Positions 12,001 through 32,073 of a DNA stretch of 42,378 nucleotides are shown here, in pieces. How positions within the stretch are numbered: position 1 is the stretch's first letter; each line of letters begins with the position of its first letter. Below the pieces are notes generated by a model. The model saw nothing but the letters and a program-made list of their open reading frames with translations. It made no database searches and was not told the origin of the DNA. Source of the DNA: Elusimicrobiota bacterium (GTDB lineage Bacteria > Elusimicrobiota > Endomicrobiia > Endomicrobiales > Endomicrobiaceae); contig JAITSO010000004.1 in the NCBI GenBank assembly GCA_031287735.1, positions 1 through 42,378 of the forward strand. Direction: 5' to 3'. The position numbers and the translations under genes are program-made.

Positions 12001-15000
12001 TGGAACTTCTTCTATAATTATTCCGTTCGCATAATCCTCAAAACCAGGCATTATGATAGAACCAGCACTTACAAGATTAGTAGCAACCTTATTGGCTAAA
12101 TTGCTAACGTTTGTATTTGGCATGCTAGCAGCACTAAAAGCCTGACTACAAGAATAACCAACTACTTTATTTACAGCAATTCCATTTACAGCAATCGCTC
12201 CATCAAAAGCTTCATCAACCACTTCGTACATGCTTTGTTCTTCGTATTCTTTAATTTCTTTTGTTCCATCTTTAGTTTCTATAACCACGATTCCTTTGTT
12301 TTTATCTATAACATCTATCAATTCTTCTACTGTTGACGGTGCATTTTCTCCATAATTCATTTGCAACCATTCTAATACAGGCTCCAACTGATCTTTTAGT
12401 CTGTCACTTTCCTCTTTAGAAATTCCAGTAATGCGCTCTTTTAGAGACACATATTCTTGCTGCTCTTTTTCTCCTTGGTGTTCTTGTATGTCTACATCAT
12501 CACTTGAAGCGTTAAGCGGTTCTAATATAGCACTTATAAAATCACTTATTGCTACGTCTACTGTTTTGCCGTCAATTAACAATTGACCGTAACTATCGAC
12601 AACAACACTTCTAACTTTACCGTCTATTTTAGCCATACTATTTGCTATATCTTGACCAACTTTCATGCTTTCATTTAGTGTTTGCTGACTTTTTCCCATA
12701 TCTGCCATTTTCATAAAAACCTGCGTAGACGAATTTACCGTTTGGCTTAAATCTGAAGTTGCGTTTTTAAACACATCAAACAACGAAAGCAACCACATAA
12801 CAAAAGCCACAAAAATTGCTACTGCTACTGCTACAACTACCAACTGCCAAGACAATACAAAAAAACCTAACATATAAAGACCATATACTGCCATTCCTAT
12901 CACAAATATTGCAGCTACTAACATCTCAGAAAAATGCTTTACGCTGTGCAAAGTAGTTTTTGAACGTGTTTTATACCAATCATAAATTTTTGCAAATGTA
13001 GCAATTATCGCAAAACCAATGATAACAACTGCAGATATCATCTTTGCTGCTAATGCTGTAAATACTATCACCTGAAATGCAAACAACCCAAAAAGCAATG
13101 CTCCTACCACTACACCTATTAAAAATCCCCAATTATCTCTTGATCTCAAGCTTTCCCAAACACTTTTTGTATTTCCGCGTATGTATGAAGTTATCCATTT
13201 TATCAAAGCAACTATGCCCACAAATGCTATTCCAAGCAAACAGCCTATCGGACCTAGCAAAACTACTGGAACAATAAATGCAACTCCGGCTAAAAGTCCA
13301 AAAATAATGCCGGAGCCCCACCTCTGAAATTCACTGCTATGCGGCGACACTTTTTTGTTTTTAAAAGCTTTCCAGTTCTTGGCCACCAAAATAATTCCAC
13401 AAACTATAGATATGAATGCGAGAACCAATCCTATAGCTAACGCAAATACCATAAACTGTGGAACTATCAATGCTACCGCCATCATCAATAAGCCTGAAAT
13501 AAAACCAGCTTTTGATACAGCCGATAATAATCTGTTTGATGAAGCAGACGTTGCACTTGCAGCTCTTGTGGCAGTTGGAGAATTGTTATATATTTCTATG
13601 TTTTCATTATCTTGCTCACTTATAGCACTATCTACTCTTTTTACAGCTGAATTTATGAGTATCAGAGCCACTGCTATAACCACCAACAAAACGGCAAGAG
13701 CAATAAAATTTACTCCAGCTAGTGCTGTTGCAAAAAGTGTTATTCCGGTGGTTTGGATCAATCCAAAAAACCCAGATACTATTGCTGTTATCAAAATTGG
13801 ACCAAATTTTGTGATAAGAGTTAAAAATCCAGAGTACAACCAGTGAAGAAAATTAATAATATGTTGCCAAAAAGAAATGCTGTCTGCAGATTTGATAAGC
13901 TCACTTACTCTTTTTCTAGCTGCCGCTTCAGCTGTTGCTTGAGCTTGCGATTGTTCAAGTGATACTTGTTCACTTTGCTTCATTTCGTTCTCTATAACTT
14001 CGGTTATTTTTATATGTGCTAATTCTCCTAATCTTTCATACTTTAGTTTTATTTTCTTTGCTGATGCACTTATTTCGCCCAAACCAAGACCATATTTAGA
14101 AGCTGATGTTCCAAATTCATCCTTTACTTCTTGGTCTATTTTTTTAAGTTCTTCTAATGCTTCAATCCTTGCTTCCTGCATTGCATTGTAAAGTGATTCT
14201 CTCATCCTTTCTAATTCTTTAAGCCCAGCTTGATAGGCTATATCATCATTCATGTATCCATTTTTATTAATTCCTATCTTTATTATGTCGTCTTTGGATA
14301 GCTCTTTTTTAAACACTGACTTTTGCCAAGCTGTGCTAGATTCGTGAAATAATTGTGCATTGACATCAAATTGCTTCAAAATATCATTTTCTACCGTTTG
14401 CATTCTTATACCAGCAGTTTCAGAAGCTAATTCATCTTGTGCTGCTATTGTTCCTATTTGTTCAAGTATATCTAACCCAACATTTGAAACTTTCCGACGA
14501 TTAATATCATTATCGACAAAATCTTGAAATACTATTGAATACGCACCGTCTGTCCCAACTTCGCTACCTGTATTTCCTTGAGTGTAAACATCTTCTGTTT
14601 GGGTTGAATAGCTTTTTTTAAGTTTATCTACTAGATCTGAATTATTATCGTTTCTTTTTATTCCTTCCATAGAGTAATATTCTCTACTTATTCCTTCTTT
14701 TCCAGCACGTCCAACTCTTGTTTTTGTTTGATGTTTTGCTGCTGCATCTTGATTTTCAGGCATTGCGTTAAGCAAAAATGATACATTAACATCCACCCCA
14801 ACCTGCACAACACCTGTTGCAAATATCATTTTTCCATATTTTCCATTTTTTGCATCTGTGTTTATTCTTTCAACTTTTGAACTTATACTTGATGGATCGT
14901 CATGTGCTCCGTCTATAACTTCTATAGTTTCGTTCACTTGATTTTCTATTTGCTCTTGACTCCATTGCGGGTTAGCTTCTTTAAGCTGAGTTCTTAACCT

Positions 15001-18000
15001 GTCTTTTGCAATATTTACAGCTCTATTCAGTGCATTTAAATCTCTAAATACCGCCATTCCACTATCATTTAAATTTTTCGTTCCGTTTACTTCAGCATCA
15101 AATTTTGCAACCTGCAAAGCTTGTCTCATAGCAAACATATCGTCTATAACTGCATCATCCCTTGCATCATTTGTACTAAAAATTTGTGCACATAATTGCG
15201 AGGGTTTTGCCACACTAGCACTTTCTACTTTAACTATAGACTTGAAACGACCACCTAACTGTTGATTGGCAAGCGTAGATTCAAAACGATCCTCCGGCAT
15301 AGTTCCTGTAAATCCGGTAACACCTCTTATATGATCTGAATTCATCCAATCTAACAAAGAACTTTTGCCAACTGTTTTCTTATCTATCGAATATCTATCG
15401 CTAAAATTGTATGTATGCCCGTTAAGAACTGAAACAAGATCGCTTGCACCGTTATCAACTAGCTGCTGCACTCGTTCTAAATAGACTTCAACTGCCAATT
15501 GCCTGCCTTCCCAAACAGAATTTTTACTAACTTCACTAGTTTTATCGCTCATTAAGCTTACAATTGTCTGCTCTCTTGCATTTAAACTAGCAAAAACACC
15601 ATCAATTTTCCTATAACCTAGTATTTCAAATATATTGTTTTCATCAATATCATTGTAAGCTGCACTAACAGTTTTTACTTGCTTTCTGTCTCCATCTCCT
15701 ATTTCAACCTGCAATTGGCAAACTTCACCGGCTCTTGCAACCTCTCCTATTACCGTCGCTTTTATTGGAGCATGGTTTGGATAATTTAATGTAAATATTT
15801 TTCCTTTTTTTGACGTCGTAACGTATTGCTGACCATCTTTAAAAGTTTGTGCGTCTAGTGAGTACTGAGCAAGATTTAAAAATTCATCTCTGGAATAAGT
15901 TCTTACGGCTTTTGCACCTTCGCTTTGATCGTCACTTTTTTGTATCTGCCTGTACAACCTTTCCATTTTACGTCTTCCCTTCTCGTTAAGCAGACAATTT
16001 CCATCTTTTTGCTCATAATCTTCATCTTTTACTAACCATTTACCATTATCTCTATTGCTTAACGCATAATCTATCACCCAACTTTGAGCAGGAAGCTGAT
16101 TGACATTTAACGACTCGCCTGAAGATCTTATGAATTGCTGGTTTAAATCATTCAGCAAAGCATGTGCTTCATCAGCTACAAAAACCCAATTTTGCGATAA
16201 TTGACCCAAATCTTTTTCGCTCGTATCGCCAGCATTTCTAAATGCTGGATTTCTGGCATCTTGATTATCCCAATTTAGAGTATCTCTTCCAGCTCCAACA
16301 ACCTTTGAGTATTTATATAGGTTTGACTTTGTAACTTTTATAGTACTTTCATCGCTAACGTTAAGTTTAAATTCTGTTATTTCTTCACCTTTTGCATTAA
16401 ACGCTACAGCATCGCCTCCATTACCTAAAAACCCAACTAAAACCAAAGGATTACCGTCTACATCATAAACTGTTCTTACACCTGAATTGATTAAAATATT
16501 TTGAACTTCATCGCTATTAAAATAACTTGCAAGAGCACTCATATCTCTATATATCAATGTTTCATTATAAGAGCTGTATAAAATAGATTCTCTGCTACCT
16601 TTCCTCTCAGCGTTTACTAAAATTTTTGTCATGGCGTTTTTTCCTACGCCAGACTTTCCGCCGCCAGTTCCCAATGTAACTATATTTCCAAGCTCTGCAA
16701 CTTTATCAGAAGCTTCTATCTGTCTTTGCAACATATCTTGATTTACGTTTGCGGCGCCAATAGTGTTTTCTGTATTAACAGTGAAAGCTCTGTCTATAAC
16801 AGATTTATCTTCTACTTTGTGCAGTTCCGCTTTGCGTTCAGCAATAGTAGTGCTTTTGCTAAATAATCCTCTAAAAAATATTGATAACAAAGAAAACAAA
16901 TCTGCTATAGATACAAAAAGTTCAGCGAAAAACCCACGACCTATAGCCTCGCCTAATTTTTTTTCTACACTTTGATGTCTTAATTCATGGCTTACAAATA
17001 CATTTAATGTAGTGGTATTTTTGACATTTCCGCTCTGATCAAAAAAAAGATGACCTACTCTACTCCAATTAAACTTAACAACACCAATATCACTATATTC
17101 CATAATTACATTTGCATCAGTATTTTCTATAGACATTCTATTGATAAAGCTTTTTATGTATCTTGATATTGTGGTATTTTCGCTCAAAAATTCTTTAAAT
17201 TTACCTTCATATATTGCACGTTTTATATCTCGCAATTGTTCGCTGCCAATATTGTATGCTGCAAATACATTTTCAATCAATAAATTTGAAGTTTTATTGT
17301 CTAATGCTCCAACTATTTTGCAAAAGCAATCTATTTTTTCTTCATAAGTAAGCTCTACCAAACCACCGCCACTTATAAAACGAGCTTGATAAAACAAATA
17401 TATCATCGGAAGGATAAACACCAAAATGGATATCGTCAACATAATAGTGAGGAAAATAATTCCAAAAATTCCACCTACAAAAACAAAAATAAGTGAAGCT
17501 ACTGTCACAAAAATAGCTGATAAAAAACCTGCCGAAACTGCAGATTTAACAGCACTTCCTATGGATTTATGCATTCCATCATCATCATCTTGAGGATTTG
17601 TAGGATTTTGTTGCTGATTTTGTGGTTGTTGTGTACCGGAGTTTTGCTGCAACTGTTGTGCTTGTTCATCGGTTAGTTCTACAAATTCAGCATCAAATTC
17701 AAGCTTTTGTGCATCGTATCTAAAATATTTAGTTCCTTTCGAAGCACTATATTCTACTTTTAATACAATATTTCCAGATTCGTCAAAAGAGATATCAAAA
17801 TCTTGCACATAAGCAGAATTTGTTCCTTTTATGTCATTTATTTTGTTTTTTATTTCATCTAGACTTATTTTTGTGTTTGGATCATCGCTTAAAGCACTAT
17901 CAAAATTTTTCACTATTTCATCTAATTTAACACCAGCTTTTCCAATGCTTACTTTACTACCCATAATAATATCTGCTGCTTTACTAAATACATCAACTTG

Positions 18001-19959
18001 TCTACTTGCAAGCTTATAAGCCTTGCTCTGTCCAAGTACAAATGTTTTTGTTTTTTCATGGTAAGTAAAAACTTTATTTAATGTAGAACCTGTAACAGCA
18101 TCTGTATAAGTTACGGTTAGAACGTATAATTCACCATCTTGTGAAATTATGGCTGATTGTATTTGGTTTTGTTGGCTGTCATATTTACCACTCGCTACAG
18201 TTGAAAGAATGTCGTTTATGTCATCAATAGGTTTTTTGGTTGACACAGAAGCTGAGGCAATTTCAGACAATTTTACATCTACAGGCGCCTGACTTAAGTT
18301 TAGTATGTTGATTGCACTAAACATTATTTCTCTTTGGGCTTTTGCAAACTCATAATATGCTTCTTCAGCTATTTTAACACCGCCACTAACATTTGGCATT
18401 ATAACTATGTAAGATATTCCTTTACTTGCAAGCAAATGGGACAATCCTTCCGTATGAAACCCACCCGTCACAACCACAGATACATTTTTAGCTTTTTTCA
18501 ATGATTTCACAACTTTTTCAGCTACAGAAAGTTTATCATCAATTGCACCAGATAATTTAGAACTATTTTTTATGCTATCTATATTTTCTATGAAATATTG
18601 ATTGCGCATTAAATTAATATTGTAAAAAATATCCGCTGTTTTTTCATAGGGAGTAAGCAAATCAAGATGTTTGGAACCTAAGTACTTGAACCAAATTTTC
18701 TTAAAATTACCTATATTTTCTACATAATGAGCATAATCTATAGCTGTTATTTGCCCACTGAAATAATCTTTCAAATATCTTGTAAAAGCAGATAAAAATG
18801 CAACATCTTTTTGACCTTGATCTAAAGCAAAAAGAGATGTTAATTCGTTCTTTAGTATTTCTTCTTCACCTATCATCTCTAGTGGGTTCACTTTTTGGCT
18901 TATTTCTATGTATGATAAAAACTTATTTAACTCTGGAAAATTTACGTTTAAATCCATGTTATTTTGCCTTGAAAGCCTAATAATATAGACATACAGTTTT
19001 TCTATTTCAGTAAAATTTGAAGTAGAGTCTGCAATCATTTTATACGCTGCATAAGGCAATGCATCTCTTATTCTTAAAATAAACTGTTGAAGTTCTAAAG
19101 TTGCTCTTTGGTAATCTATTGTCTTGTTTTTCTTTAAAAGTTCCATGTAAAGGTTGGTATTTTCGTATTTACTCAAATCTACACCCAAACTATCAGAATA
19201 TTTTTCTAGCAAAGAGTAGTATTTGTTAGCTTCTACACGTCTTTCCAAATATTGATTAGAAAGATTCTCAATTTTCATCTGTTTTTTGTTGTAATACGAA
19301 GCTTTTAGCATTTGAACAGTATTATCAATGTTTTTCACAATGTCTTTAATGTTATCTTGAGAATAAAGAATATCTCCAAACCTTTTTAAATTATCTAAAT
19401 AAGGGTCTTTTTTCTCTAAACCTTTTACCAAATACGGACGTGAAGTAATCGAAGAATAATACTCAGGACCTGTTAAAACACCTGTAGAAAAAATCTCATT
19501 TATTGTCTGGTTTCTTATCTCAGTGTTTTTTATATCTGTAAGCCAAGTTGTATCAACAGTATCGTAAGCACCTTCCATATACACGTGTCTAACACCATAT
19601 TCTTTATCAAAAGTAGCAATTATATTGCTGATGTTTTTTTGAACTTCAGGGTGTAAGTGCAGATCTTGGATATTTATGATAACAGAATCGCTATTTGCAA
19701 AATGAGATGACGTTATCTTGCCATAAGAATACGGCAGCGTGAAATCAGAAAATATTTGCTTGAATTGGCTGGCAGTTCTCATATTTTCAGACACTATAGC
19801 TATTGCTTGTCCGTAAACAAAAGATAACAGAAAACAATTTATCACAAAAATAGAAATTGCTTTAACAGCTCTCAATTCTTCTGAAAATAAACAAAATTTG
19901 GCTATGTTTTTTGTTATTTTGTCACAAATCTTTCTTAACTTCATTTTTAAATTTTCCAT
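1..19959 (-). CDS. Giant multidomain membrane protein, at least 6,653 aa, C-terminus beyond window
   Basis: Function unknown. The frame opens at ATG 19959 behind a GGAGG site and is still open at base 1; every stretch I translated lies in this one frame without a stop. Order by residue: signal anchor 31-50; TIKI/TraB/ChaN-like domain about 85-520 (IQDLHLHP at 97, GGFHTEG at 499); Q/N-rich linker about 765-790; hydrophobic pair 805-860; HELRH 991-995; SecA-like ATPase 1075-1800 (GTGGGKS 1097-1103, DEAH 1263-1266, TGFTGT 1548-1553, GRAGKEG 1750-1756); charged helices; membrane block 2030-2395; tandem repeats about 2670-3920; one helix near 3970; long charged helical region to 4915; membrane blocks 4915-5490 and 6270-6495 around a soluble part. 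It follows nfnB by 27 bases, so it is probably co-transcribed with nfnAB. Minimum mass is near 730 kDa. The open frame is certain enough; the role is not known. Confidence 0.93.
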   Translation of the reverse strand, partial: MENLKMKLRKICDKITKNIAKFCLFSEELRAVKAISIFVINCFLLSFVYGQAIAIVSENMRTASQFKQIFSDFTLPYSYGKITSSHFANSDSVIINIQDLHLHPEVQKNISNIIATFDKEYGVRHVYMEGAYDTVDTTWLTDIKNTEIRNQTINEIFSTGVLTGPEYYSSITSRPYLVKGLEKKDPYLDNLKRFGDILYSQDNIKDIVKNIDNTVQMLKASYYNKKQMKIENLSNQYLERRVEANKYYSLLEKYSDSLGVDLSKYENTNLYMELLKKNKTIDYQRATLELQQFILRIRDALPYAAYKMIADSTSNFTEIEKLYVYIIRLSRQNNMDLNVNFPELNKFLSYIEISQKVNPLEMIGEEEILKNELTSLFALDQGQKDVAFLSAFTRYLKDYFSGQITAIDYAHYVENIGNFKKIWFKYLGSKHLDLLTPYEKTADIFYNINLMRNQYFIENIDSIKNSSKLSGAIDDKLSVAEKVVKSLKKAKNVSVVVTGGFHTEGLSHLLASKGISYIVIMPNVSGGVKIAEEAYYEFAKAQREIMFSAINILNLSQAPVDVKLSEIASASVSTKKPIDDINDILSTVASGKYDSQQNQIQSAIISQDGELYVLTVTYTDAVTGSTLNKVFTYHEKTKTFVLGQSKAYKLASRQVDVFSKAADIIMGSKVSIGKAGVKLDEIVKNFDSALSDDPNTKISLDEIKNKINDIKGTNSAYVQDFDISFDESGNIVLKVEYSASKGTKYFRYDAQKLEFDAEFVELTDEQAQQLQQNSGTQQPQNQQQNPTNPQDDDDGMHKSIGSAVKSAVSAGFLSAIFVTVASLIFVFVGGIFGIIFLTIMLTISILVFILPMIYLFYQARFISGGGLVELTYEEKIDCFCKIVGALDNKTSNLLIENVFAAYNIGSEQLRDIKRAIYEGKFKEFLSENTTISRYIKSFINRMSIENTDANVIMEYSDIGVVKFNWSRVGHLFFDQSGNVKNTTTLNVFVSHELRHQSVEKKLGEAIGRGFFAELFVSIADLFSLLSIFFRGLFSKSTTIAERKAELHKVEDKSVIDRAFTVNTENTIGAANVNQDMLQRQIEASDKVAELGNIVTLGTGGGKSGVGKNAMTKILVNAERKGSRESILYSSYNETLIYRDMSALASYFNSDEVQNILINSGVRTVYDVDGNPLVLVGFLGNGGDAVAFNAKGEEITEFKLNVSDESTIKVTKSNLYKYSKVVGAGRDTLNWDNQDARNPAFRNAGDTSEKDLGQLSQNWVFVADEAHALLNDLNQQFIRSSGESLNVNQLPAQSWVIDYALSNRDNGKWLVKDEDYEQKDGNCLLNEKGRRKMERLYRQIQKSDDQSEGAKAVRTYSRDEFLNLAQYSLDAQTFKDGQQYVTTSKKGKIFTLNYPNHAPIKATVIGEVARAGEVCQLQVEIGDGDRKQVKTVSAAYNDIDENNIFEILGYRKIDGVFASLNAREQTIVSLMSDKTSEVSKNSVWEGRQLAVEVYLERVQQLVDNGASDLVSVLNGHTYNFSDRYSIDKKTVGKSSLLDWMNSDHIRGVTGFTGTMPEDRFESTLANQQLGGRFKSIVKVESASVAKPSQLCAQIFSTNDARDDAVIDDMFAMRQALQVAKFDAEVNGTKNLNDSGMAVFRDLNALNRAVNIAKDRLRTQLKEANPQWSQEQIENQVNETIEVIDGAHDDPSSISSKVERINTDAKNGKYGKMIFATGVVQVGVDVNVSFLLNAMPENQDAAAKHQTKTRVGRAGKEGISREYYSMEGIKRNDNNSDLVDKLKKSYSTQTEDVYTQGNTGSEVGTDGAYSIVFQDFVDNDINRRKVSNVGLDILEQIGTIAAQDELASETAGIRMQTVENDILKQFDVNAQLFHESSTAWQKSVFKKELSKDDIIKIGINKNGYMNDDIAYQAGLKELERMRESLYNAMQEARIEALEELKKIDQEVKDEFGTSASKYGLGLGEISASAKKIKLKYERLGELAHIKITEVIENEMKQSEQVSLEQSQAQATAEAAARKRVSELIKSADSISFWQHIINFLHWLYSGFLTLITKFGPILITAIVSGFFGLIQTTGITLFATALAGVNFIALAVLLVVIAVALILINSAVKRVDSAISEQDNENIEIYNNSPTATRAASATSASSNRLLSAVSKAGFISGLLMMAVALIVPQFMVFALAIGLVLAFISIVCGIILVAKNWKAFKNKKVSPHSSEFQRWGSGIIFGLLAGVAFIVPVVLLGPIGCLLGIAFVGIVALIKWITSYIRGNTKSVWESLRSRDNWGFLIGVVVGALLFGLFAFQVIVFTALAAKMISAVVIIGFAIIATFAKIYDWYKTRSKTTLHSVKHFSEMLVAAIFVIGMAVYGLYMLGFFVLSWQLVVVAVAVAIFVAFVMWLLSLFDVFKNATSDLSQTVNSSTQVFMKMADMGKSQQTLNESMKVGQDIANSMAKIDGKVRSVVVDSYGQLLIDGKTVDVAISDFISAILEPLNASSDDVDIQEHQGEKEQQEYVSLKERITGISKEESDRLKDQLEPVLEWLQMNYGENAPSTVEELIDVIDKNKGIVVIETKDGTKEIKEYEEQSMYEVVDEAFDGAIAVNGIAVNKVVGYSCSQAFSAASMPNTNVSNLANKVATNLVSAGSIIMPGFEDYANGIIIEEVPEEVSAQIEKLQNAGYQVEVAEINGRAFYVLTKDGVSFPMVPVYSTEGELNDVDVFTIDTIFEAYFFLADIENASVTGRTDKEGYIFFEVRDVYTGDYINFYPFQEDGTPSDLTKVTDSLKLRNVFLQLMSIYGEDNVKVETDSNGNLLFKITRYGVTCSFYPYDSNGNLDKNLFNKIDSTFSLCDSLMDEGYSVNFIMEDVLDSNGKVIGRNSCLEVTGDKDFKTKTYIEYDENGNIDVEAAKRLINSSNLMHDFFTQLASIYGAENVKMEADENKYVYFRVTSGSKSDNFYPYDKNGRIDKNFIENIGHVFNVWQTFLDAGYDVTLHTETGTDVATGQEKQILYFEINDNEGFSMNIYPFDKNGNIADIDASSIQKLQKSFQFLKSIYGKDGGSVILTSDANQNMIVRITTKDGKIYDFYPYDINGKFNENFATNACALLDFRDVLLVLGMSDVAIESKKIIDEKTGKVSYYVYFKITGPNDFAYDLYPQFDENGKINEAATDKLIKDMAAIKSFYDQLYDIYSKNGAKVELTEDKNGYMVFKITTKDGKSKEFYPYKSDGSLNVNFVANVNSIISTWSMLSDLGYNVEPKTEEVTDKDGKVVGYNFYFEFTTKDGTVLKIYPQYDANGNILANNLEKLISETAQIHSMYKILCDIYGSANVIMGNDDNGIYIKITATDNRGNKLTQTVYPYDSSGTLNENFVRDVQSFFSFWVSISDSADFLGLTVTPKTKEVIVNKNGKDVKEYFSYFEVTGPAGFAMDIYPQFDEKTGAVKDQEKTLENLTNIFGAYNALTSIYGEGNVIITEDKTGNMVFRVTATDSKGKTITSDFYPFDSNGQFNKNFVNNTRGVIEFWKSLSDLDFSNINIGTEEIKDSDGKVIGNYLYVEVTDANGFNMKLYPEFDEKTGEVSNVNSNDIALLRDFYSELLKMTGVENVKIVTDGGNLFFEITSKDSNGNTSTSRFAPFKSDGKIDKNFVANVKHIYSTKQAFEKLGYNVTTTIEDGVLSITISKDGKTTLTIYPFDESGKIIEDFNIDAIDKMYKLKSDFEAAGCKIEFKNVYVNGKKHLIATITSKDGNVLDDIYVFNADGNVFNGEALLEVMKVWDTLEQSGYDVSIKNDGKNYIVSMTKDGTTVNFPITWDKNGKPNFNVEKAEYLFNMAADLKNSGFEVEYLLVDGYLVVEVWDKGHKWGNPVRLPPFYLDGSLSGQIARYVNAENIKTIFSSLEVAAGKGYKVKLVYADVKDKDGNIVERGKLYIEIDYMGSVWPVDPFNPNDADPDKRTARSCNEVVADLDSQVAKYILLQGMNTPAAVALTVGAPIAMIAAIVKAAIGKRKSKRKAARKLKTADSQEEEEIESLLDDMSALSPSMVITKELIELQVRQQVNPEENEETEKYEKRIKKIANNISERIAQRSETISERKEIPKNVNVSLTSYDVDQSLGKQLVDFFMQDRVVLGNGINKKLERDGGVVGTDNSSQAQELKDTKLDNDKFHFLDFANSRTINPVDFQSLRTNKDFEGIVASIRHIKILNETFSRINRQDPNDASIISPLDITNDNDVDDFYKYTFTDENMQSIIENIVNSASEIDKNNDVYILRQLKISLMAEVEKRTLDLFQKTIEEGAKGNANVADMLANIIKTQSITAPTDKMMVLKRIADLGLLDGYANDSTLVLELTQSQNFNDFFESVVKHTIVMKEYSDMKDMFPVVFSDLSFINPEYAKGKNILEQKLNDITKTVVATLVRNPMKLSINEQTKEIMIDQPDAPIQSNPITFREKIISEFLQFNPSSVIANKNNILSSTVFSNSSPAQQQRILDMLAMNPSLGAMSIDWSALMNLTVQINKIMNRTKLPTDNSDFLTTDDAQYAISEMIDSTYRVLKMKQMMLLENQREISNNTRRQAQDSFADRMTDENWMNFFSEIISDFSPTNGRSQEDISKSLLARDYVNFNIYSMTYGEADIYMPQVRIFLQEAGKLAIDSSGRIDMMKSIADYYDYVSKLKSQIRENNQNADKSKNTKQAVITEEVFSILTNVNNAHNDFYEMFPEYKDSANYYRAINQDVNDPTKNTYLVLFKTAAQIQADFDRYTTLKLSRSMKADFLNMRNVISIEHIQKKEILSEMKQQMSQLRDIANKNSGKIDITQLSDEVFEYFCDSFYDNNYFLYAFTQGNSKNFIDDKGKIYNLDKAFETPKQFRDFVEKIKNGQISDMTTKNIIDTAVLSVPLDAVEHKELKNVRKHRSIYEKLNDKSIVVEGSEFEFKALLTKGMLDIGVKTWNKSGILNKLLAIFIFLSLPLLLAVDIIYNLVYGFLFKMFLKNLFTNNPVWRFLSNFVQGFIDVVSDPETTKADVALAFLKLVVKLLLALILSPVLFVLAVAASFMPAKIEHFLENTLGAFIMKLLSWDFWGINTWQQKLAVVLITILMLAIAVFFFLFPYVGVLNMIIPIALQSIFLNMSYFIGGIMLALILFLPKVIAGHAEGDRSLTSGKGIFVLLGLIVLVLGAVAGFILPYVLALSAALSAGLLIGALVVLIATFLLFNLYVAKPGGTRWTYTKSIVYFGAIWGGFLGTIFFKSLPLAIASIASAATPLAMLWPIITIVSGFILWLIVAPSTLTAINNFVVASAGKEKQEYEMEDSTDYNTRKVTTEIQKWGLIFFAAAVCLVTASISGLVMGGIAIAGIPAVLFIGIICAAIAAVILIISYIHKAITRGDIIDTLDSGINALMIVGFFSTAIGVIIGLVLPTFTFALAVLGFAILMVSLVLKSILLLVKNIKLRNLNKKATDATGMIVAGGFLLAFFIGVIVVTNIFAAILSPMLIAAALWISIVGIIAAALFLIISGSVLSKKNWDIRIATKAGADKDGAGMHAQTITESIKAKDNQDKFRNLIDEEKRGLLLPNNATVSNYMIRTVNELFSKGYINARERFVWVTSIVLENTNIKGKHEERVDFAKNVYLQQPGVEDGQLLDEWKSDVFDRGERFTPFGSTMAEEAINNAMDSLFKFSSRTDYGSTMSMPVSDILVQRGGEVNIVTMDRMLSKSAYDDKGNAITGTYDRGGNLLGKYARTQESRWAQVKHDIKNIWENNKSAISSTSDSTALENFINKLSSLKETDYIAIPKLSDANAKNVLAKISVVVENFASTAVWSEVPVYQSMASSQYQMQRAIATELGDFEYVLALDNIFANPANRGSMEEAYRVISDKQNDANAAASLSNQEIYFKNKYEFYKSRAAAKLRPIMSDWKVEVEVSLVSAGFGKDSTLSDFRPLNKFVEQLSSLSKSSSASVEAKNVAIATIKSLVDDGIVIETIDPQTNIATYAVAYNKNYTLKSFGKKYEDWRLNNLSLIDEMVRNNYVPSWNDFSLVASSMYLSYFYDIDLGVHSRGAVSEKIPTDASDINNINKVKTISYNDFAGGGKTFGQAENFEQLGEVTDNRDAHTAMLVGSEELHIYAMQTMWNEIQEKGTVVMNMNMTTDSVALDQNGDPLNVQGFLYGSAQQQFTGFVQSGSQNVSGYGKEFGSKRAIASVYTTGEDSFAVFLQQHYYNQGRQLGKSVPRGIHSTIMKTVWGRPYSKIGYTEMRYGENVTRYDMEIMDGIDQDSNEFLDETAEQIGWDRKFANHMFSMHYEASPVMALVLSTFLRLLMFFSGFTFATPFWFVLSLILILSQSSSASVFVDMIRKEGDFFKGFLKGLKFLFLGIPFWGNTQVLQAAGVISAGNDYYAFGGTFKEKTNEEGGGGALAKVRYDELPAKWGRWNYTSGGLALMIFGVLTALTTGFSVFMLVLYIVADLIYVIVAAAWMNGKNAYGAFIRKDGSIDSYNWWAFYGKAFLMALLQIPLSICSLIDVVFKFFGYERSSAYWLIRPFFNSRDNEFGYYSLTDIQVYEFFDNERESDLIQKEAAKLFCKRENLQKLKADIQNLQKKTDKTMQTEIEVYAEVMDALDSMLTPTKGSSDFNAVQDLFKLLKENCTGTPISNLIKTHFVEKCLNSITQDNRVRMETSYQSNYDTPARKIV
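475..3492 (-). other. C-terminal soluble region plus membrane block 3 of the giant protein
   Basis: Residues about 5490-6270 are mainly soluble (for example KDGAGMHAQTITESI, MNMNMTTDSVALDQNG, TEMRYGENVTRYDMEIMDG); residues about 6270-6495 add about six helices, followed by a soluble tail leaving the window. The layout membrane block, large soluble part, membrane block resembles that of fungal/plant beta-1,3-glucan synthases (GT48), and a few short stretches are weakly alike, but I do not claim that family. Confidence 0.45.
3490..5217 (-). other. Membrane block 2 of the giant protein (about 16 helices)
   Basis: Residues about 4915-5490 hold a long run of hydrophobic helices. Several appear as hairpins of about 75-85 residues with glycine-rich first helices, separated by short charged loops (for example after WTYTKS, EIQKWG and KKNWD). 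The pattern resembles membrane block 1, suggesting internal duplication of hairpin modules. Confidence 0.7.
8190..11960 (-). repeat. Tandem alpha/beta repeat array in the giant gene (about 19 units of about 65 aa)
   Basis: Each unit ends in a strand-turn such as FYPYDSNG, IYPQFDENG or IYPFDESG. These anchors recur near plus-strand positions 11700, 11510, 11317, 11117, 10918, 10731, 10527, 10325, 10121, 9915, 9700, 9497, 9293, 9102, 8931, 8730, 8565, 8395 and 8190, about 195 bases apart. Two forms alternate: one with YG..NV.....D..G...F.IT.KDGK before YPYD, the other with LGY.V...TEE..DKDGK.....YFE.T before YPQFD, giving a superperiod of about 400 bases. Units are diverged, so this is old duplication. 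The fold is not recognised. Confidence 0.85.
12775..13872 (-). other. Membrane block 1 of the giant protein (about 11 helices)
   Basis: Residues about 2030-2395 hold about eleven hydrophobic stretches, mostly paired, with small-residue GxxxG patterns and short basic/aromatic connectors such as KNWK and KIYDWYK. It follows a charged coiled-coil-like region rich in E, K and A and precedes the repeat array. Confidence 0.75.
14560..16737 (-). other. SecA-like DEAD-motor ATPase region of the giant protein
   Basis: Residues about 1075-1800, close to the size of the SecA motor. Motifs occur in SecA order: a P-loop GTGGGKS where SecA has TGEGKT; DEAHALLNDL followed by an SSG where SecA has DEVDSMLIDE and ISG; GVTGFTGT where SecA has AGMTGT; and GRAGKEGISREYYSMEG where SecA has [20 protein letters not shown]. 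A motif-V-like IFATGVVQVGVDV sits before the last one. The second glycine-rich GVGK directly after the P-loop is unusual. No preprotein cross-linking domain could be recognised by eye. Confidence 0.72.
16975..16989 (-). other. HExxH zinc-peptidase motif in the giant protein
   Basis: Residues 991-995 read H-E-L-R-H, within FVSHELRHQSVEKK, preceded by a beta-prone TTTLNVFV stretch. This is the standard zincin helix (two His ligands and the catalytic Glu). A third ligand could not be assigned, so activity is inferred only. Confidence 0.5.
18400..19707 (-). other. TIKI/TraB/ChaN-like domain of the giant protein
   Basis: Residues about 85-520. The N-terminal end has a hydrophobic strand followed by IQDLHLHPEVQ, then YMEG; the C-terminal end has VVVTGGFHTEGLSHLL. 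This first-motif Asp/His and terminal GxxH pattern, separated by a helical insertion, is what the TraB/GumN, ChaN and TIKI families show, some of which are metal-dependent proteases. It lies directly after the signal anchor, so it is probably extracytoplasmic. The match is by motif only. Confidence 0.5.
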
Positions 19960-26685: not shown

Positions 26686-27276
26686 ATGATATTGGGGCTT
26701 ACCGGCAGTATCGCATGCGGAAAAACAGAAACTGCTGAAATTTTAAAGTCTTTAGGCGCATACGTAATAGATGCCGATGTCATTTCTAAAAAATTAACCC
26801 AAAAAAATAAAATTATTTTAAACCAAATTCGCAAAAAACTTGGTAAAGATATCTTTTTTGAAAATGGCGATTTAGATAGAAAAAAGCTTGCAGATATTGT
26901 TTTTTCAAACGATAAATATAGAAAAGACCTAGAGAAAATTTTGATACCTAAAATTATAAAAAAAATAAAAGAAATAGCACATAAAAACAGCAAACAAAAA
27001 TTTTTAGTGATAGATGCTCCGCTTCTTTTCGAAACAAAACTGCACAAATTCTGCGATAAAACTTTAACAATTTCTTCTACGCGAGCAAACCAAATCAAAA
27101 GGCTAAAACTTCGTAATAACTTAACGCAATTTCAGATAAAGCAAAGGATACGTTCTCAAATATCTTTGAAAGAAAAAGAAAAACTTTCAGATTTTGTAAT
27201 AAAAAACAATGATACCCAAAGAAATTTAGAAAAAAGAGTAACCGATTTTTTAAACTTCTTAAAAACTACTTATTAG
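26686..27276 (+). CDS. coaE: Dephospho-CoA kinase
   Basis: Last step of coenzyme A synthesis. 196 aa, normal length. P-loop GSIACGKT at residues 7-14, VIDADVISKKL after it as the usual (D)AD substrate motif, and VIDAPLLFE near residue 105. AAGGA ribosome site seven bases before ATG; 25 bases after pyrC. It is the last gene of the folP operon; the repeat field begins just after its stop. Confidence 0.93.
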   Translation: MILGLTGSIACGKTETAEILKSLGAYVIDADVISKKLTQKNKIILNQIRKKLGKDIFFENGDLDRKKLADIVFSNDKYRKDLEKILIPKIIKKIKEIAHKNSKQKFLVIDAPLLFETKLHKFCDKTLTISSTRANQIKRLKLRNNLTQFQIKQRIRSQISLKEKEKLSDFVIKNNDTQRNLEKRVTDFLNFLKTTY

Positions 27277-27390
27277 AGGAGCAAAAATTTTTGGAATAGC
27301 TGCAAGCCATCAATTCCACATTTTTCGGGTGGGCGGCAAGATGTGAGCCTTTAATTCCACATTTTTTAAAAGAGCAGCAGTGCAGTTTAA

Positions 27391-27516
27391 TTCCACATTT
27401 CAAACAGGAAGTAGCAATTCCACCTTTTTCAGGTGGACGAATGCCAAGATGCAAGCCTTTAATTCCACCTTTTTTAAAGGGGGTGGGCGGGCTAGCACGG
27501 CCGGGGGTTTTCAAAC
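27391..27516 (+). repeat. Dispersed repeat element, copy A (126 bases)
   Basis: Begins TTCCACATTTCAAACAGG, includes the perfect hairpin CCACCT-TTTTC-AGGTGG at 27420-27436, a second AATTCCACC unit, and ends in a G+C-rich tail (GGGCGGGCTAGCACGGCC) and GGGGGTTTTCAAAC. It matches copy B with only about two differences over 126 bases. Confidence 0.88.
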
Positions 27517-27583
27517 CTCTCGACTTTACCGGTTTTCCATTCAATTTTTATTTGATCCTCATAAATTTAGGTTTTAAATCCCT

Positions 27584-27619
27584 GCACTTTTCAAGTGCTG
27601 TCCCTTTATGAAAGGGACA
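27584..27619. repeat. Two adjacent hairpins between repeat copies
   Basis: GCACTT-TTC-AAGTGC at 27584-27598 and TGTCCCTTT-ATG-AAAGGGACA at 27599-27619, both perfect stems with three-base loops. Neither is followed by a T run on the plus strand, so they are not simple terminators; they resemble the palindromes of the surrounding repeats. Confidence 0.6.
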
Positions 27620-27689
27620 ATTTTGCGACGAGGTGGGACGAAATTCCCACTTTTTCGGGAGGAAATAGACGATTCAAGCCGTTTTTATT

Positions 27690-27876
27690 CCACCTTTTTT
27701 AAAAATGTGTGACTTCAATTCCACATTTCAAACAGGAGGTAGCAATTCCACCTTTTTCAGGTGGACGAATGCCAAGATGCAAGCCTTTAATTCCACATTT
27801 TTTAAAGGGGGTGGGCGGGCTAGCACGGCCGGGGGTTTTCAAACTCCAGACTTTAATTTTTTACGCAAACCTTTAT
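27690..27876 (+). repeat. Dispersed repeat element, copy B with extended flanks
   Basis: The 126-base core is 27719-27844. Beyond the core the left flank (from CCACCTTTTTTAAAAATG) and right flank (CAGACTTTAATTTTTTACG..AAACCTTTAT) are also found at copy C on the far side of the restriction-modification gene, but not at copy A. Copies B and C are thus direct repeats bounding that gene. Confidence 0.88.
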
Positions 27877-27942
27877 TTCTTATTTTTACAATTCAAACAC
27901 TAAAAAAAATAAAGTATTTACTTAAACCTAAGGAGCAACAAA

Positions 27943-30681
27943 ATGTTAAAAATTGAGAGTTTATTTAAAAATTCCAAACACAAATGCAGTCAATTTAGCG
28001 ATGAACAAATCAAAAATTTCGAAAAACGAATTTTAGCTAAAAAAGACAAAAACAATAAAGAAAGTTTTTATATCAACTGCATTATCCGCAAGAAAGAAGT
28101 AAAACTCACGCCTGAAGAAGTTATCCGGCAAATGTATTTAGAGCGTTTGCTGCAAGAATATAAATATCCTGCCGACCGTATTCAATTAGAGTATCCTGTC
28201 AGCTTTGGACGTGAAAATAAACGTGCAGATATAGTAATTTTCGATAAACAGCAAACCACTTCCGCCTACATCATCATAGAGATGAAACAACCCAAGCTTA
28301 AAGACGGCAAAGAGCAGCTAAAATCTTACTGCAATGCTACAGGAGCACCTATCGGCGTGTGGACAAATGGTGATTCTATTTCTTTTTATCATCGTAGAGA
28401 TCCAAACTATTTTGAAGATATCCCAAATATTCCAAAAGCATCAGAAAAACTATCTGAAATTCTCCTTGAGCGTTGGACAATTAAAGATTTGATAAACCGT
28501 GATAAGTTGCTTAATGAGCGTAAATCACTAAAAGATTTAGTGCTTGAAATGGAAGACGAAGTTTTAGCAAATGCCGGCGTAGATGTTTTTGAAGAATTGT
28601 TTAAGTTGCTATTTACTAAACTTTTTGATGAGTTAGAAAGCGGTCGCAATCACAAAAGATGTTTAGAATTTAGAAATTACGGCGATACAGAAACCGAGTT
28701 AAAAACTAAAATTCAAAACCTTTTTAATAAAGCCAAACAAAAATGGGAAGGCGTTTTTTCGTCAAGCTCCAAAATAGAATTAACCTCTTCACATCTGTCT
28801 GTTTGTGTATCATCATTGCAAGATGTAAAGCTATTCAATAGCAATCTTGATGTTATAGACGATGCTTTTGAATATCTAATTAACAAAAGCAGCAAAGGCG
28901 AAAAAGGTCAATATTTTACCCCGCGGTATGTAATTGATATGTGCGTAAAGATGTTAAACCCAAATGAAGAAGAATCTATGATAGACACAGCGGCTGGCAG
29001 CTGTGGATTTCCTGTACACACTATTTTTTATGTTTGGAAAAAGATATTAGAAGATGAAGGATTAGCTCAAAGCCACCTTTTTACGCTTGAACAAAAACCA
29101 GCACGTTGCAGTGATTATGTAAACAACAAAGTTTTTGCGATTGATTTTGACGAAAGATCAGTTCGTGTAGCGAGAACTCTTAATTTGATTGCCGGCGACG
29201 GGCAAACCAATGTTTTACATCTAAATACTCTTGACTGGCAACGTTGGAACGAGAAAACAGGTGATACTCAAACACCTGCTGATCAAAAATGGACAGACAC
29301 TTACAGTTCAGGATGGAAAAATTTAAAGAAAATGCGAGCTACTGATGCAGACAGTAACCACAAGTTTAACTTTGATGTTTTGATGGCCAATCCGCCATTT
29401 GCTGGGGATATAAAAGAAAGCCGCATTCTTGCAAAATATGATTTAGGCAAAAAATCTAACGGAAAACACCAAAACAATATAGGACGAGACATTCTTTTTA
29501 TTGAGCGCAACATTGACTTTCTAAAACCTGGCGGACGTATGGCTATTGTGCTGCCGCAAGGTCGTTTTAACAATTCAAGCGACAAATATATCCGTGAATT
29601 TATTGTAAACCGTGCTAGAATTTTAGCTGTTGTAGGTTTACACGGAAATGTTTTTAAACCTCATACTGGCACAAAAACAAGCGTTTTATTTTTGCAAAAA
29701 TGGGATGATAAGTTATGCCCAAAAGTTGACGATTACCCGATATTTTTTGCAACTATGCAAGCACCAAGCAAAGATAATTCCGGCGATAAAATTTATGTAA
29801 AAAATGAAGACGGAACTTATAAATTAGACTCTCACGGCCATTTGATAGTTGACCATGACCTTTTTAGCCACGACAACCAAACTCAAGCCGGCATAGCAGA
29901 AGCATTCATTGAATTTGCCAAAAAAGAGGGTTTAAGTTTTTTTGCGGAAGAACTGCTTTTGGAAACGATAGGCTTAAAAGATTTCCAGCCCGCACGGGAA
30001 AACATAAACATAAAACGCTTTTCTGAATCGTTCCTGGCGACAGGACGGCTGGACGCGGAGTATTACCAGCCAAAATATGAAGCAATATTATCGAAAATTA
30101 AACAGCACGAATATGATTTGTTAGGTAATTTAGTATCTATTAAAAAATCAATAGAGCCAGGTTCCGATGCATACAGCGATGAAGGTTTACCGTTTTTGCG
30201 CGTTGCCGACTACAACAAATTTGGAATTTCGAATCCCGATAAGAAAATTTCAAATAACTTTTGTAATGACAACCGGGAACTGATAGCCAGTCTTAAACCA
30301 AAAAAAGAGACTATATTATTTTCTAAAGATGGTAGCGTAGGTACAGCGTACATGTTACGCGAAGATGCTGATTTTATTACTTCAGGTGCTATACTTCATT
30401 TAACTGTCAAGAAGAAAAAAATTTTACCGGAATATTTGACTTTGGTACTCAATTCCGAAGTTGTACAGCAACAAGCTGAGCGCGATGCGGGCGGATCAAT
30501 TATTCTTCATTGGCGAATGGAAGAAATTGAAAAAGTGGTAATCCCTATCGTCAATGATAAAACCCAGCGTCGCATTGCCGACTTAGTCGAAAAAAGCTTT
30601 TCTCTGCGACAAGAGTCGGAGCAGTTATTAGACAAAGCTAAAGATATGGTAGAAAAAGAAATAGAAAAAGCTGAAAAATAA
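27943..30681 (+). CDS. Single-chain restriction-modification-specificity enzyme (type IIG/type I-like N6-adenine methylase)
   Basis: 912 aa. Residues 50-150 form an HsdR-N-like nuclease domain: KRADIVIFD (D96), then IIIEMKQ (E113, K115), a PD-(D/E)xK site. The methylase follows: GQYFTPRYV near 322, a SAM motif I variant DTAAGSCGF near 348, AIDFDERSVRVA, and catalytic NPPF near 483. From about 693 a target-recognition domain begins (SFLATGRLDAEYYQPKY), ending in a charged coiled coil. No separate hsdR, hsdM or hsdS gene is in the window, so cutting, methylation and recognition appear to lie in one chain. Ribosome site AAGGAG eight bases before ATG. The gene sits alone between direct repeats, which fits acquisition as a cassette. 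Whether the nuclease is active is inferred from motif only. Confidence 0.88.
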   Translation: MLKIESLFKNSKHKCSQFSDEQIKNFEKRILAKKDKNNKESFYINCIIRKKEVKLTPEEVIRQMYLERLLQEYKYPADRIQLEYPVSFGRENKRADIVIFDKQQTTSAYIIIEMKQPKLKDGKEQLKSYCNATGAPIGVWTNGDSISFYHRRDPNYFEDIPNIPKASEKLSEILLERWTIKDLINRDKLLNERKSLKDLVLEMEDEVLANAGVDVFEELFKLLFTKLFDELESGRNHKRCLEFRNYGDTETELKTKIQNLFNKAKQKWEGVFSSSSKIELTSSHLSVCVSSLQDVKLFNSNLDVIDDAFEYLINKSSKGEKGQYFTPRYVIDMCVKMLNPNEEESMIDTAAGSCGFPVHTIFYVWKKILEDEGLAQSHLFTLEQKPARCSDYVNNKVFAIDFDERSVRVARTLNLIAGDGQTNVLHLNTLDWQRWNEKTGDTQTPADQKWTDTYSSGWKNLKKMRATDADSNHKFNFDVLMANPPFAGDIKESRILAKYDLGKKSNGKHQNNIGRDILFIERNIDFLKPGGRMAIVLPQGRFNNSSDKYIREFIVNRARILAVVGLHGNVFKPHTGTKTSVLFLQKWDDKLCPKVDDYPIFFATMQAPSKDNSGDKIYVKNEDGTYKLDSHGHLIVDHDLFSHDNQTQAGIAEAFIEFAKKEGLSFFAEELLLETIGLKDFQPARENINIKRFSESFLATGRLDAEYYQPKYEAILSKIKQHEYDLLGNLVSIKKSIEPGSDAYSDEGLPFLRVADYNKFGISNPDKKISNNFCNDNRELIASLKPKKETILFSKDGSVGTAYMLREDADFITSGAILHLTVKKKKILPEYLTLVLNSEVVQQQAERDAGGSIILHWRMEEIEKVVIPIVNDKTQRRIADLVEKSFSLRQESEQLLDKAKDMVEKEIEKAEK

Positions 30682-30688
30682 AAATAAA

Positions 30689-30820
30689 ACCCCCGTGCTT
30701 TACAAGCACACCCCCTTTAAAAAAGTGGGAATTAAAGCAAAACTCCCATTTGTAAAAAAGAAAAGTGGGAATTAAAGCAAGGCTACCTTTCTGTAAAAAA
30801 AGAGAATTTTAAGACACTTT
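30689..30820 (-). repeat. Reverse-orientation repeat block D
   Basis: Starts with the hairpin GTGCTT-TAC-AAGCAC, then CCCCCTTTAAAAAAGTGGG and two units containing GTGGGAATTAAAGCAA, ending TGTAAAAAAAGAGAATTTT. Read on the other strand it has the same TTTAATTCCCACTTTTTTAAAG theme (broken here) as copies A-C, so it belongs to the same family. Block E is a direct copy. Confidence 0.75.
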
Positions 30821-30873
30821 CCTACCTTTTTAAAAGGTGAGAATTTTTAGAACACTGCCAAACGCTTAATTTC

Positions 30874-31026
30874 CCACCTTTTTTAAAAATGTGTGACTTC
30901 AATTCCACATTTCAAACAGGAGGTAGCAATTCCACCTTTTTTAAAGGGGGTGGGCGGCACCGCCGGCCGGGGGTTTTAAAACTACAGACTTTAATTTTTT
31001 AAGTAATTTTTTACGTAAACCTTTAT
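30874..31026 (+). repeat. Dispersed repeat element, copy C (shortened) with extended flanks
   Basis: Core 30903-30982. Relative to copies A and B it lacks 45 bases lying between two AATTCCAC(A/C)TTTTT units, as expected for a deletion by recombination between them. The G+C-rich tail differs (GGCGG-CA-CCGCC hairpin). Both outer flanks match copy B, with an extra 11 bases on the right. Confidence 0.85.
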
Positions 31027-31028
31027 AA

Positions 31029-31196
31029 AACACCCGCACTTTACAAGCACACCACCTTTAAAAAAGTGGGAATTAAAGCAAACCTACTTTTCTATAAAAA
31101 ATAAAGGTCGAATTAAAGCAAGTCTCCATTTCTGCAAAAAAAGGGTGAATTAAAGCAAGGCTTCCTTTCTGTAAAAAAAGAGAATTTTAAGACACT
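31029..31196 (-). repeat. Reverse-orientation repeat block E
   Basis: Same opening as block D (GCACTTTACAAGCACACC) and same ending (CTGTAAAAAAAGAGAATTTT), but three GAATTAAAGCAA units instead of two, spaced by roughly 35-45 bases. Unit number therefore differs between two nearby copies. Confidence 0.75.
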
Positions 31197-31245
31197 CTAC
31201 CTTCTCTAAAATTAGCTGTTAAAGGTAGGATGCGAAAAGCTTGTT

Positions 31246-32073
31246 TTATTTTTGAGATTTTAGAATTGTTTTCTTTGTTTTTTCGCAAAAATGCAGATTT
31301 TTTTTGAAATTTTGCAGTTTTTTTATAAAAATTTCTATATCTTTAGCTAAGTTTTGTCTATTCATAGATAATATCGGTGCCCACATATCTGCACTAGAAC
31401 TGGCAACTCTTGTTGCACTTTTAAACGAACCAGCTATAAGCTCATCAATATACGGCTCTTTGCGTCTAATACTTTTGTATATGCTGTTTAAAGAAAATGA
31501 AATAACGTGCGGCAAATGACTTGTAAAAGATGCAATTTTGTCATGCTTTTTTGCAGACATTTTTATTATTTTAGCTCCAATATTTTTCCACATGTCAGAT
31601 ATTAAATTTTCATTAGTAAAAGACTTTTTCATAGAACCGGTTATAACAACATTCGCATTTTTAAACATATCCGCATCTGCAAACGTCAGTCCGCTTTTTT
31701 CTTTTCCAGCCATAGGGTGAGCACCTACAAAATCTGCAGAATTGCTTTTTAAAAAACTTGAAATCTCTTTTTCTATTGGATGTTTGATGCTTCCCGTATC
31801 AGAAATCACAGCAGTTGGAAATAATGCAGAAATTTGTTTGTATATACCAGCTATTGTGTTTACAGGAGTGCAGATAATTGCAATATCGGCTTTTTTTACA
31901 CTTTGCAACCCAAAAAAAACCTCATTTGCGATATTTAACATCAGTGCTTCTTTAAAAGTTTTTTTATGTATCGTAACTCCTGCCACTTTGTAAATGGAAT
32001 TACAATTTTTTTTCAATGCAAGACATAGCGAACCACCTATTTGTCCTAGCCCAAATACGCAAACCGTTTTCAT
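31246..32073 (-). CDS. tyrA: Prephenate dehydrogenase
   Basis: Oxidative decarboxylation of prephenate (or arogenate) in tyrosine synthesis. 275 aa, a monofunctional enzyme without chorismate mutase or ACT domain. NAD site VFGLGQIGGSL at residues 7-17; IAIICTPVNTI, VISDTGSIKHPI and GAHPMAGKEKSGL hold the substrate pocket (His and Ser/Gly motifs usual for the family). AAGG ribosome site six bases before ATG. It lies 133 bases downstream of the LptF/G-family gene on the same strand; a weak promoter (TTGCAT, TAAAGT) may lie between. No other aromatic gene is nearby. Confidence 0.92.
   Translation of the reverse strand: MKTVCVFGLGQIGGSLCLALKKNCNSIYKVAGVTIHKKTFKEALMLNIANEVFFGLQSVKKADIAIICTPVNTIAGIYKQISALFPTAVISDTGSIKHPIEKEISSFLKSNSADFVGAHPMAGKEKSGLTFADADMFKNANVVITGSMKKSFTNENLISDMWKNIGAKIIKMSAKKHDKIASFTSHLPHVISFSLNSIYKSIRRKEPYIDELIAGSFKSATRVASSSADMWAPILSMNRQNLAKDIEIFIKKLQNFKKNLHFCEKTKKTILKSQK

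What the first reader, a model, noticed from the sequence alone, without database searches (positions are those of the whole stretch)
27690..31026. Restriction-modification gene bounded by direct repeats
Copies B (27690-27876) and C (30874-31026) share a core and both outer flanks and lie in the same orientation on either side of the single gene 27943-30681. Recombination between them would delete the gene and leave one repeat, and the pair could record its insertion.
Basis: partly seen in the sequence, partly recalled or inferred. Interest (0 to 1): 0.6.

Follow-up and report, generated by a model that had tools for sequence, protein, structure and literature searches.

The report
Restriction gene inside a palindromic repeat array
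A DNA-cutting defence gene of an Endomicrobium-like bacterium lies inside an array of hairpin-forming repeats found at dozens of places in its genome, and these repeats preferentially border restriction and toxin genes, which seem to be copied, shuffled and lost with them; the repeats themselves appear tied to a little-studied nuclease family (DUF559).

Summary
Copies B (27690-27876) and C (30874-31026) are same-orientation repeats around one intact 912-codon restriction-modification (R-M) gene; they share a 68-bp perfect block and a common right flank. They are not a private insertion scar. The repeat is a genome-wide REPIN-like family (115 termini, 46 mapped clusters) made of C-rich palindromes with covarying mini-hairpins. 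It occurs in only one other of 95 class relatives searched. No empty site exists in the genomes held: coaE and tyrA are not neighbours in any relative.

R-M and toxin genes are over-represented beside the clusters. One R-M gene family is a multi-copy cassette with its own 5' and 3' repeat arms: one complete copy, at least eight contig-end fragments, one decayed copy, and swapped recognition domains. In another genus, the window gene's homologue and a decayed second copy each carry a repeat of the same architecture about 20 bp downstream. The window enzyme itself is an RM::S fusion that lost its first recognition domain.

Best reading: repeats act as homologous-recombination ports on which R-M genes ride and decay. 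No RAYT is present; DUF559 nuclease genes, bracketed by such palindromes in several phyla, are candidate partners. Movement was inferred, not observed.

The parts
27943..30681 (+). R-M gene, 912 aa: HSDR_N nuclease domain, N6 adenine methylase, one specificity (TRD) domain
   Evidence: Pfam HSDR_N_2 1.3e-28, N6_Mtase 4.4e-30, Methylase_S 2e-9; PADLOC PDLC03034 1124.9 bits over residues 7-668; nearest solved structure RM.BsaXI 8w0p
28111..28434 (+). HSDR_N_2 (PD-(D/E)XK-type nuclease) domain
   Evidence: residues 57-164; D...E-x-K seen in RADIVIFDKQQTTSAYIIIEMKQ
28846..29781 (+). N6 adenine methyltransferase domain, NPPF motif present
   Evidence: residues 302-613
29930..29970 (+). fusion point: first recognition domain of an ancestral two-TRD S subunit lost, RM joined in frame to the S C-terminal half
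   Evidence: compared with L032 (RM 710 aa + S 468 aa) and G012:C27 (RM then two-TRD S)
30166..30600 (+). remaining specificity domain (TRD2)
   Evidence: residues 742-886
27277..27942 (+). upstream repeat array between coaE and the R-M gene
27386..27516 (+). repeat copy A, 98% identical to B over 131 nt, 328 nt upstream
   Evidence: family D3; alignment
27690..27876 (+). repeat copy B of the finding
27690..27757 (+). 68-bp block identical to 30874-30941
   Evidence: 100%, E 8.5e-29
30682..31245 (+). downstream repeat array between the R-M gene and tyrA
30684..30802 (+). sub-repeat X, 82% identical to 31025-31143 on the other side of C
   Evidence: family D6
30874..31026 (+). repeat copy C of the finding
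31025..31143 (+). sub-repeat X'
   Evidence: family D6
26686..27276 (+). coaE, left neighbour
   Evidence: Pfam CoaE 1.9e-51
31246..32073 (-). tyrA (prephenate dehydrogenase), right neighbour
   Evidence: Pfam PDH_N 6.7e-30

Best explanation
The gene is a single-chain derivative of a BcgI/BsaXI-like R-M enzyme lodged inside an array of a genome-wide REPIN-like palindromic repeat. The repeats spread on their own, probably with the help of a DUF559 (Vsr-like) nuclease. Once dispersed, they give homologous-recombination machinery many short, near-identical ports. R-M and toxin-antitoxin genes that fall between two arrays can then be copied to other arrays, exchange parts, decay, or be deleted by crossing-over; their own addictive or defensive effect favours keeping them. 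B x C recombination would delete this gene. SHOWN here: the repeat family, its hairpin covariation, its excess beside R-M/toxin genes, a multi-copy R-M cassette with repeat arms and a decayed copy, swapped recognition domains, and a repeat of the same architecture beside this gene's homologue in another genus. INFERRED: the recombination route, the direction of movement, B x C deletion, the benefit of addiction, and DUF559 as mobiliser.
For: Genome-wide family. Palindrome plus variable, complementary mini-hairpins. Neighbours include six N6_N4_Mtase 5' ends plus 3' fragments, Eco57I/TaqI_C, Methylase_S, a ResIII/PLD helicase and YefM-YoeB. R-M/toxin families adjoin clusters about 2.4-4 times more than expected (P 0.001-0.02), and three are flanked on both sides against 0.06 expected (P 4e-5). 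Cassette with distinct 5' and 3' arms, at least nine copies, decayed copy at C56. Paralogues: 87-98% identical N-terminus, 24-40% TRD, 86-96% catalytic core. In G012, two of only three genome matches to a related repeat lie about 20 bp after an intact and a decayed copy of the window gene's homologue. No Y1/RAYT in this genome; DUF559 next to the repeats.
Against: No movement, excision circle or deletion junction was seen. The window gene is single-copy here, so mobility of this particular gene in this genome is unproved. About half of the clusters have no R-M neighbour visible, and three lie in a prophage region, so the repeats move without R-M genes. The R-M-rich relative G012 has many R-M genes without shared repeats, so R-M spread does not need them. 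The enrichment test uses an estimated gene count and R-M fraction, and cassette copies were counted once.
Confidence: 0.6

Rival explanations
1. Insertion with long target duplication: the R-M gene inserted once, duplicating a repeat-containing target so that B and C are the two target copies.
For: B and C are each other's best match, 68 bp identical with shared right flank; this insertion mode has been proposed for R-M genes (PMC3031569).
Against: B has a 98% identical copy A upstream and C sits between X and X', so tandem duplication inside the array explains the likeness. For the cassette at C7 the two arms are different subtypes and are not each other's best match. No empty site is available.
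Confidence: 0.17
2. Chance: repeats are common in intergenic DNA and this R-M gene merely has one on each side.
For: 46 clusters in 1.36 Mb, many beside housekeeping genes; three in a prophage region.
Against: Enrichment and double flanking, conserved cassette arms around at least nine MTase copies, and a related repeat beside the homologue in G012.
Confidence: 0.12
3. The repeats are regulatory or insulating elements (terminators, attenuators, mRNA 3' stabilisers) kept beside genes that must be tightly controlled.
For: Strong covarying hairpins; position just before and after genes; such roles have been hypothesised for REPs (PMC3733652 abstract).
Against: Tandem duplication within arrays, entry into a prophage region and patchy presence (one other of 95 class relatives) fit a spreading element better than a conserved regulator. 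The roles are not exclusive.
Confidence: 0.08
4. Composite transposon: the repeats are ends of an insertion sequence that carries the R-M gene.
For: R-M genes between IS copies are known (PMC3031569).
Against: No transposase ORF in or beside the array; no Y1 transposase in the genome; the units are noncoding palindromes.
Confidence: 0.03

Closest known systems
R-M systems as mobile elements in Candidatus Endomicrobium trichonymphae (Zheng et al. 2016, cited in PMC11257099)
   Same: Same bacterial family; R-M genes and remnants tied to genome rearrangement.
   Different: As I recall its abstract (the paper is not held), no transposon or integrative structure was found there; here the R-M genes lie in identifiable palindromic repeat arrays. 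The 2024 survey calls R-M genes rare in the family, whereas this genome has 26 N6_N4_Mtase matches.
REP / REPIN elements with RAYT transposases (PMC3116915; PMC2817692 abstract)
   Same: Intergenic palindromes in inverted pairs that form a hairpin or clover shape, in clusters, with a single-copy partner gene beside each repeat family.
   Different: No RAYT in this genome; the adjacent candidate partner is a DUF559 PD-(D/E)XK nuclease; units are about 160 nt; R-M and toxin genes sit between them.
Insertion with long target duplication of R-M genes (Nobusato 2000, cited in PMC3031569)
   Same: R-M gene between long direct repeats that could delete or amplify it.
   Different: Here the repeats are a pre-existing dispersed family with further tandem copies.
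BcgI / BsaXI type IIB R-M enzymes (RM + S subunits)
   Same: Nuclease + methylase in one chain with a separate two-TRD S subunit in the relatives L032 and G012; RM.BsaXI is the nearest solved chain.
   Different: The window enzyme lost TRD1 and is an RM::S fusion with one TRD.

Membership tests
REPIN/RAYT system | High-copy intergenic palindromes, often in inverted pairs | tested here: met
   61 + 54 termini, inverted halves and covarying hairpins
REPIN/RAYT system | RAYT (Y1 transposase) in the genome beside the repeats | tested here: not met
   PF01797: 0 matches in G000
IS composite transposon | Flanking copies encode or derive from an IS with transposase | tested here: not met
   Noncoding palindromes; no transposase beside the gene
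R-M insertion with long target duplication | Flanking direct repeats are the two copies of a target present once in the empty site | tested here: inconclusive
   B/C are mutual best matches but A and X/X' exist; no empty site held
Type IIB (BcgI/BsaXI-like) R-M | RM chain with nuclease and N6 methylase domains | tested here: met
Type IIB (BcgI/BsaXI-like) R-M | S subunit with two recognition domains | tested here: not met
   Only TRD2 remains, fused in frame; two TRDs in L032 and G012
Type IIB (BcgI/BsaXI-like) R-M | Cuts on both sides of the site | not testable with these tools
   needs purified enzyme
Mobile R-M element (sensu Kobayashi) | Presence/absence or multiple positions within or between genomes | tested here: inconclusive
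   Met for the MTase cassette and for the homologue in G012 (intact + decayed copy); not shown for the window gene itself

The most novel reading that the evidence does not exclude
DUF559 nucleases are the partner of a widespread class of C-rich palindromic intergenic repeats, a REP/RAYT-like system built on a PD-(D/E)XK nuclease instead of a Y1 transposase. Each DUF559 gene is bracketed by its own repeat type, non-autonomous copies disperse through the genome, and R-M and toxin genes exploit the dispersed copies as recombination ports.
Probability: 0.45. Interest if true: 0.78.

Novelty: new variant of a known kind. Interest (0 to 1): 0.6.

Why it matters
It offers a physical substrate, dispersed palindromic repeats, for the reported but unexplained mobility of R-M genes in Endomicrobia, and it predicts deletion and exchange junctions that long reads can show. 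It also points to DUF559, a common nuclease family that only 14 papers of the held library mention, as the possible driver of repeats that litter genomes in several phyla.

Tried and rejected
Empty site in relatives: searched with coaE and tyrA in 77 family genomes; synteny too poor, no same-genus genome held.

RAYT as mobiliser: rejected, no PF01797 in G000.

Virus or plasmid carriage of this repeat: none in IMG/VR by exact pattern or in plasmids by BLASTN.

Generality of R-M/repeat linkage: in G012's 13 R-M loci no shared repeat family, apart from the homologue of the window gene; in G011 some sequence is shared between R-M loci, which I did not resolve.

Repeats in the Campylobacteraceae homologue L032: no BLASTN match.

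Breakpoint argument: I first read coaE/tyrA as a breakpoint made by the insertion, then dropped this because neither gene keeps any neighbour in the relatives compared.

Zheng et al. 2016 could not be read; what I say of its abstract is from memory.

Full report
OBSERVATION. The R-M ORF 27943-30681 (912 aa) lies between coaE and tyrA. Copies B and C are there as described: same orientation, 68 bp identical on the left (27690-27757 = 30874-30941), C lacking 45 nt that B has, then a shared core and right flank. A further copy A, 98% identical to B over 131 nt, lies 328 nt upstream. C is bracketed by X and X', 82% identical. The gene therefore sits in a tandem array.

REPEAT FAMILY. The upstream array gave 96 matches in its own genome (1.36 Mb, 60 contigs) and none in 20 relatives. 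The terminal pattern AATTCCNMCTTTTTTAAAGGGGGTG occurs 61 + 54 times, with 0 for the reversed control. Of the 95 other class genomes searched, only G070, of another genus in the family, also has it (16 + 13). I mapped 46 clusters; many end contigs. A full unit is about 160 nt and symmetrical: AATTCC..CTTTTTTAAAGGGGGTGG-hairpin-CCGGGGGTTTTAAAACC, an AT-rich loop, then the inverse. The mini-hairpins differ between copies but stay complementary (for example GCGCTT/AAGCGC, GCACAG/CTGTGC, GGTCGCT/AGCGACC). The mean stem is 4.8 against 3.7 for shuffles in G000 and 5.1 against 3.8 in G070.

WHAT LIES BESIDE IT. Neighbours include N6_N4_Mtase genes, an Eco57I/TaqI_C methylase, an HsdS-type domain, a ResIII/PLD helicase and a YefM-YoeB pair. 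Counting each family once, seven R-M/toxin families adjoin clusters where 1.7-2.9 were expected (P 0.001-0.02, depending on the assumed R-M content). One of the seven, the 798-aa protein at C57, was counted as R-M from its look alone; it matched no Pfam, NCBIfam or PADLOC model. Three such genes or gene pairs are flanked on both sides against 0.06 expected (P 4e-5). These figures use an estimated gene count and are approximate.

A MULTI-COPY R-M CASSETTE. The 508-aa MTase at C7 lies between a 5' arm and a 3' arm of different repeat subtypes. The 5' arm recurs before MTase 5' ends at contig ends C1, C16, C26, C31 and C48. The 3' arm recurs after MTase 3' ends seen at the ends of C22, C34, C50, C51, C53 and C54, and further 3' ends close C1 and C7. 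C56 holds both arms around a frameshifted, internally deleted remnant. So there are at least nine copies plus a decayed one, and the assembly breaks in them. The three paralogues readable across the recognition domain are 87-98% identical in the N-terminal part, 24-40% in the recognition domain and 86-96% in the catalytic core, which indicates recognition-domain exchange.

THE WINDOW GENE. Domains: HSDR_N_2, N6_Mtase, one Methylase_S; PADLOC type I MTase model 1124.9 bits; nearest solved chain RM.BsaXI. The closest genome homologue found is in a Campylobacteraceae MAG, 72% identical in its best segment, with RM 710 aa plus a separate two-TRD S of 468 aa and no such repeats. G012 has the same RM + two-TRD S arrangement. 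The window protein is an in-frame RM::S fusion that lost TRD1. In G012, a related repeat (CCCCTTCTGTGAAGGGGTG) has three genome matches. One lies about 20 bp after the S gene of the homologue. A second lies about 20 bp after a shrunken remnant of the same gene on another contig. This is independent support that this gene and this class of repeat travel together.

MECHANISM. The repeats spread on their own: they are also interspersed in a prophage early region with an exonuclease and a RecT-like annealing protein. No RAYT is present. The one strong DUF559 gene of the genome (C15) directly follows a repeat cluster. G070 has two DUF559 genes, each beside a different repeat family of its own. Across the class, C-rich palindromes occur 2.0 per kb within 300 bp of DUF559 genes, 0.08 per kb farther off and 0.019 per kb in control loci. 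Flank similarity tracks DUF559 protein relatedness (Spearman 0.445, permutation P 0.0002; control stretches 1.1-1.4 kb away P 0.09). The DUF559 genes of G000 C15 and G070 C83 fall in one clade with 98/95 support, together with two others. Twelve plasmid DUF559 loci from cyanobacteria, alpha- and gammaproteobacteria and Deinococcus show the same: 29 C-rich palindromes in 7.2 kb near, 13 in 35.3 kb far; two tested are multi-copy. Shared ancestry of neighbourhoods could inflate the correlation, and no cutting or movement was shown.

Once dispersed, such repeats provide short identical stretches for homologous recombination. That accounts for cassette duplication, recognition-domain exchange, decay in place and the predicted B x C deletion. 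This route is inference.

COMPARISON. R-M genes as mobile elements are known, in this very family too (PMC11257099 citing Zheng 2016), and R-M genes between repeats are known (PMC3031569). REPINs with RAYTs are the nearest model for the repeats (PMC3116915). None of the 14 held papers that mention DUF559 has a title or abstract that links it to such repeats; I read passages of only one of them. The placement of the genome near Endomicrobium is inferred from the kinship groups and from one relative (G009) that is a single 1,588,979-bp contig, the size I remember for E. proavitum; no tool named it.

VERDICT. The wider pattern is a new variant of a known kind, and the DUF559 link is the part most worth testing.

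Noticed in passing
window 1-19959, - strand: An open frame of more than 6,600 codons running off the window, with seven copies of a 51-nt repeat about 400 nt apart (9062-11524): a giant repetitive, probably surface, protein.
   Followed up: no
L080 (G000:C32) 1906-9132: Prophage early region (DnaD-like, HNH, exonuclease phrog_298, RecT-like phrog_561, two repressors; the first two named by eye) with three repeat clusters between its genes.
   Followed up: partly
L103 (G067:C11) 130-1374: In another genus tyrA also abuts a DUF559 gene bracketed by palindromic repeats, an independent case beside the same core gene.
   Followed up: partly
L155, L162, L157 (cyanobacterial plasmids): DUF559 genes sit inside defence islands (between DUF499 and DUF1156 genes, or before a BREX PglX); L155 and L162 have flanking palindromes, L157 none by my criterion.
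   Followed up: no
L158, L160: DUF559 genes with palindromes lie between genes of catabolic operons (acyl-CoA carboxylase, hpa), on the opposite strand, as if inserted.
   Followed up: no
G000:C31 24927-27642: Several methyltransferase remnants with many stops, a decaying R-M region about 4 kb from a repeat cluster.
   Followed up: no
L032 4380-5000: The Campylobacteraceae homologue of the window gene directly follows a run of what read by eye as tRNA genes, a usual insertion neighbourhood.
   Followed up: no
window 27705-27956: The repeat itself is open for 83 codons and overlaps the start of the R-M gene; repeats elsewhere also give short ORFs with a common FNSTFFKGGG motif.
   Followed up: no
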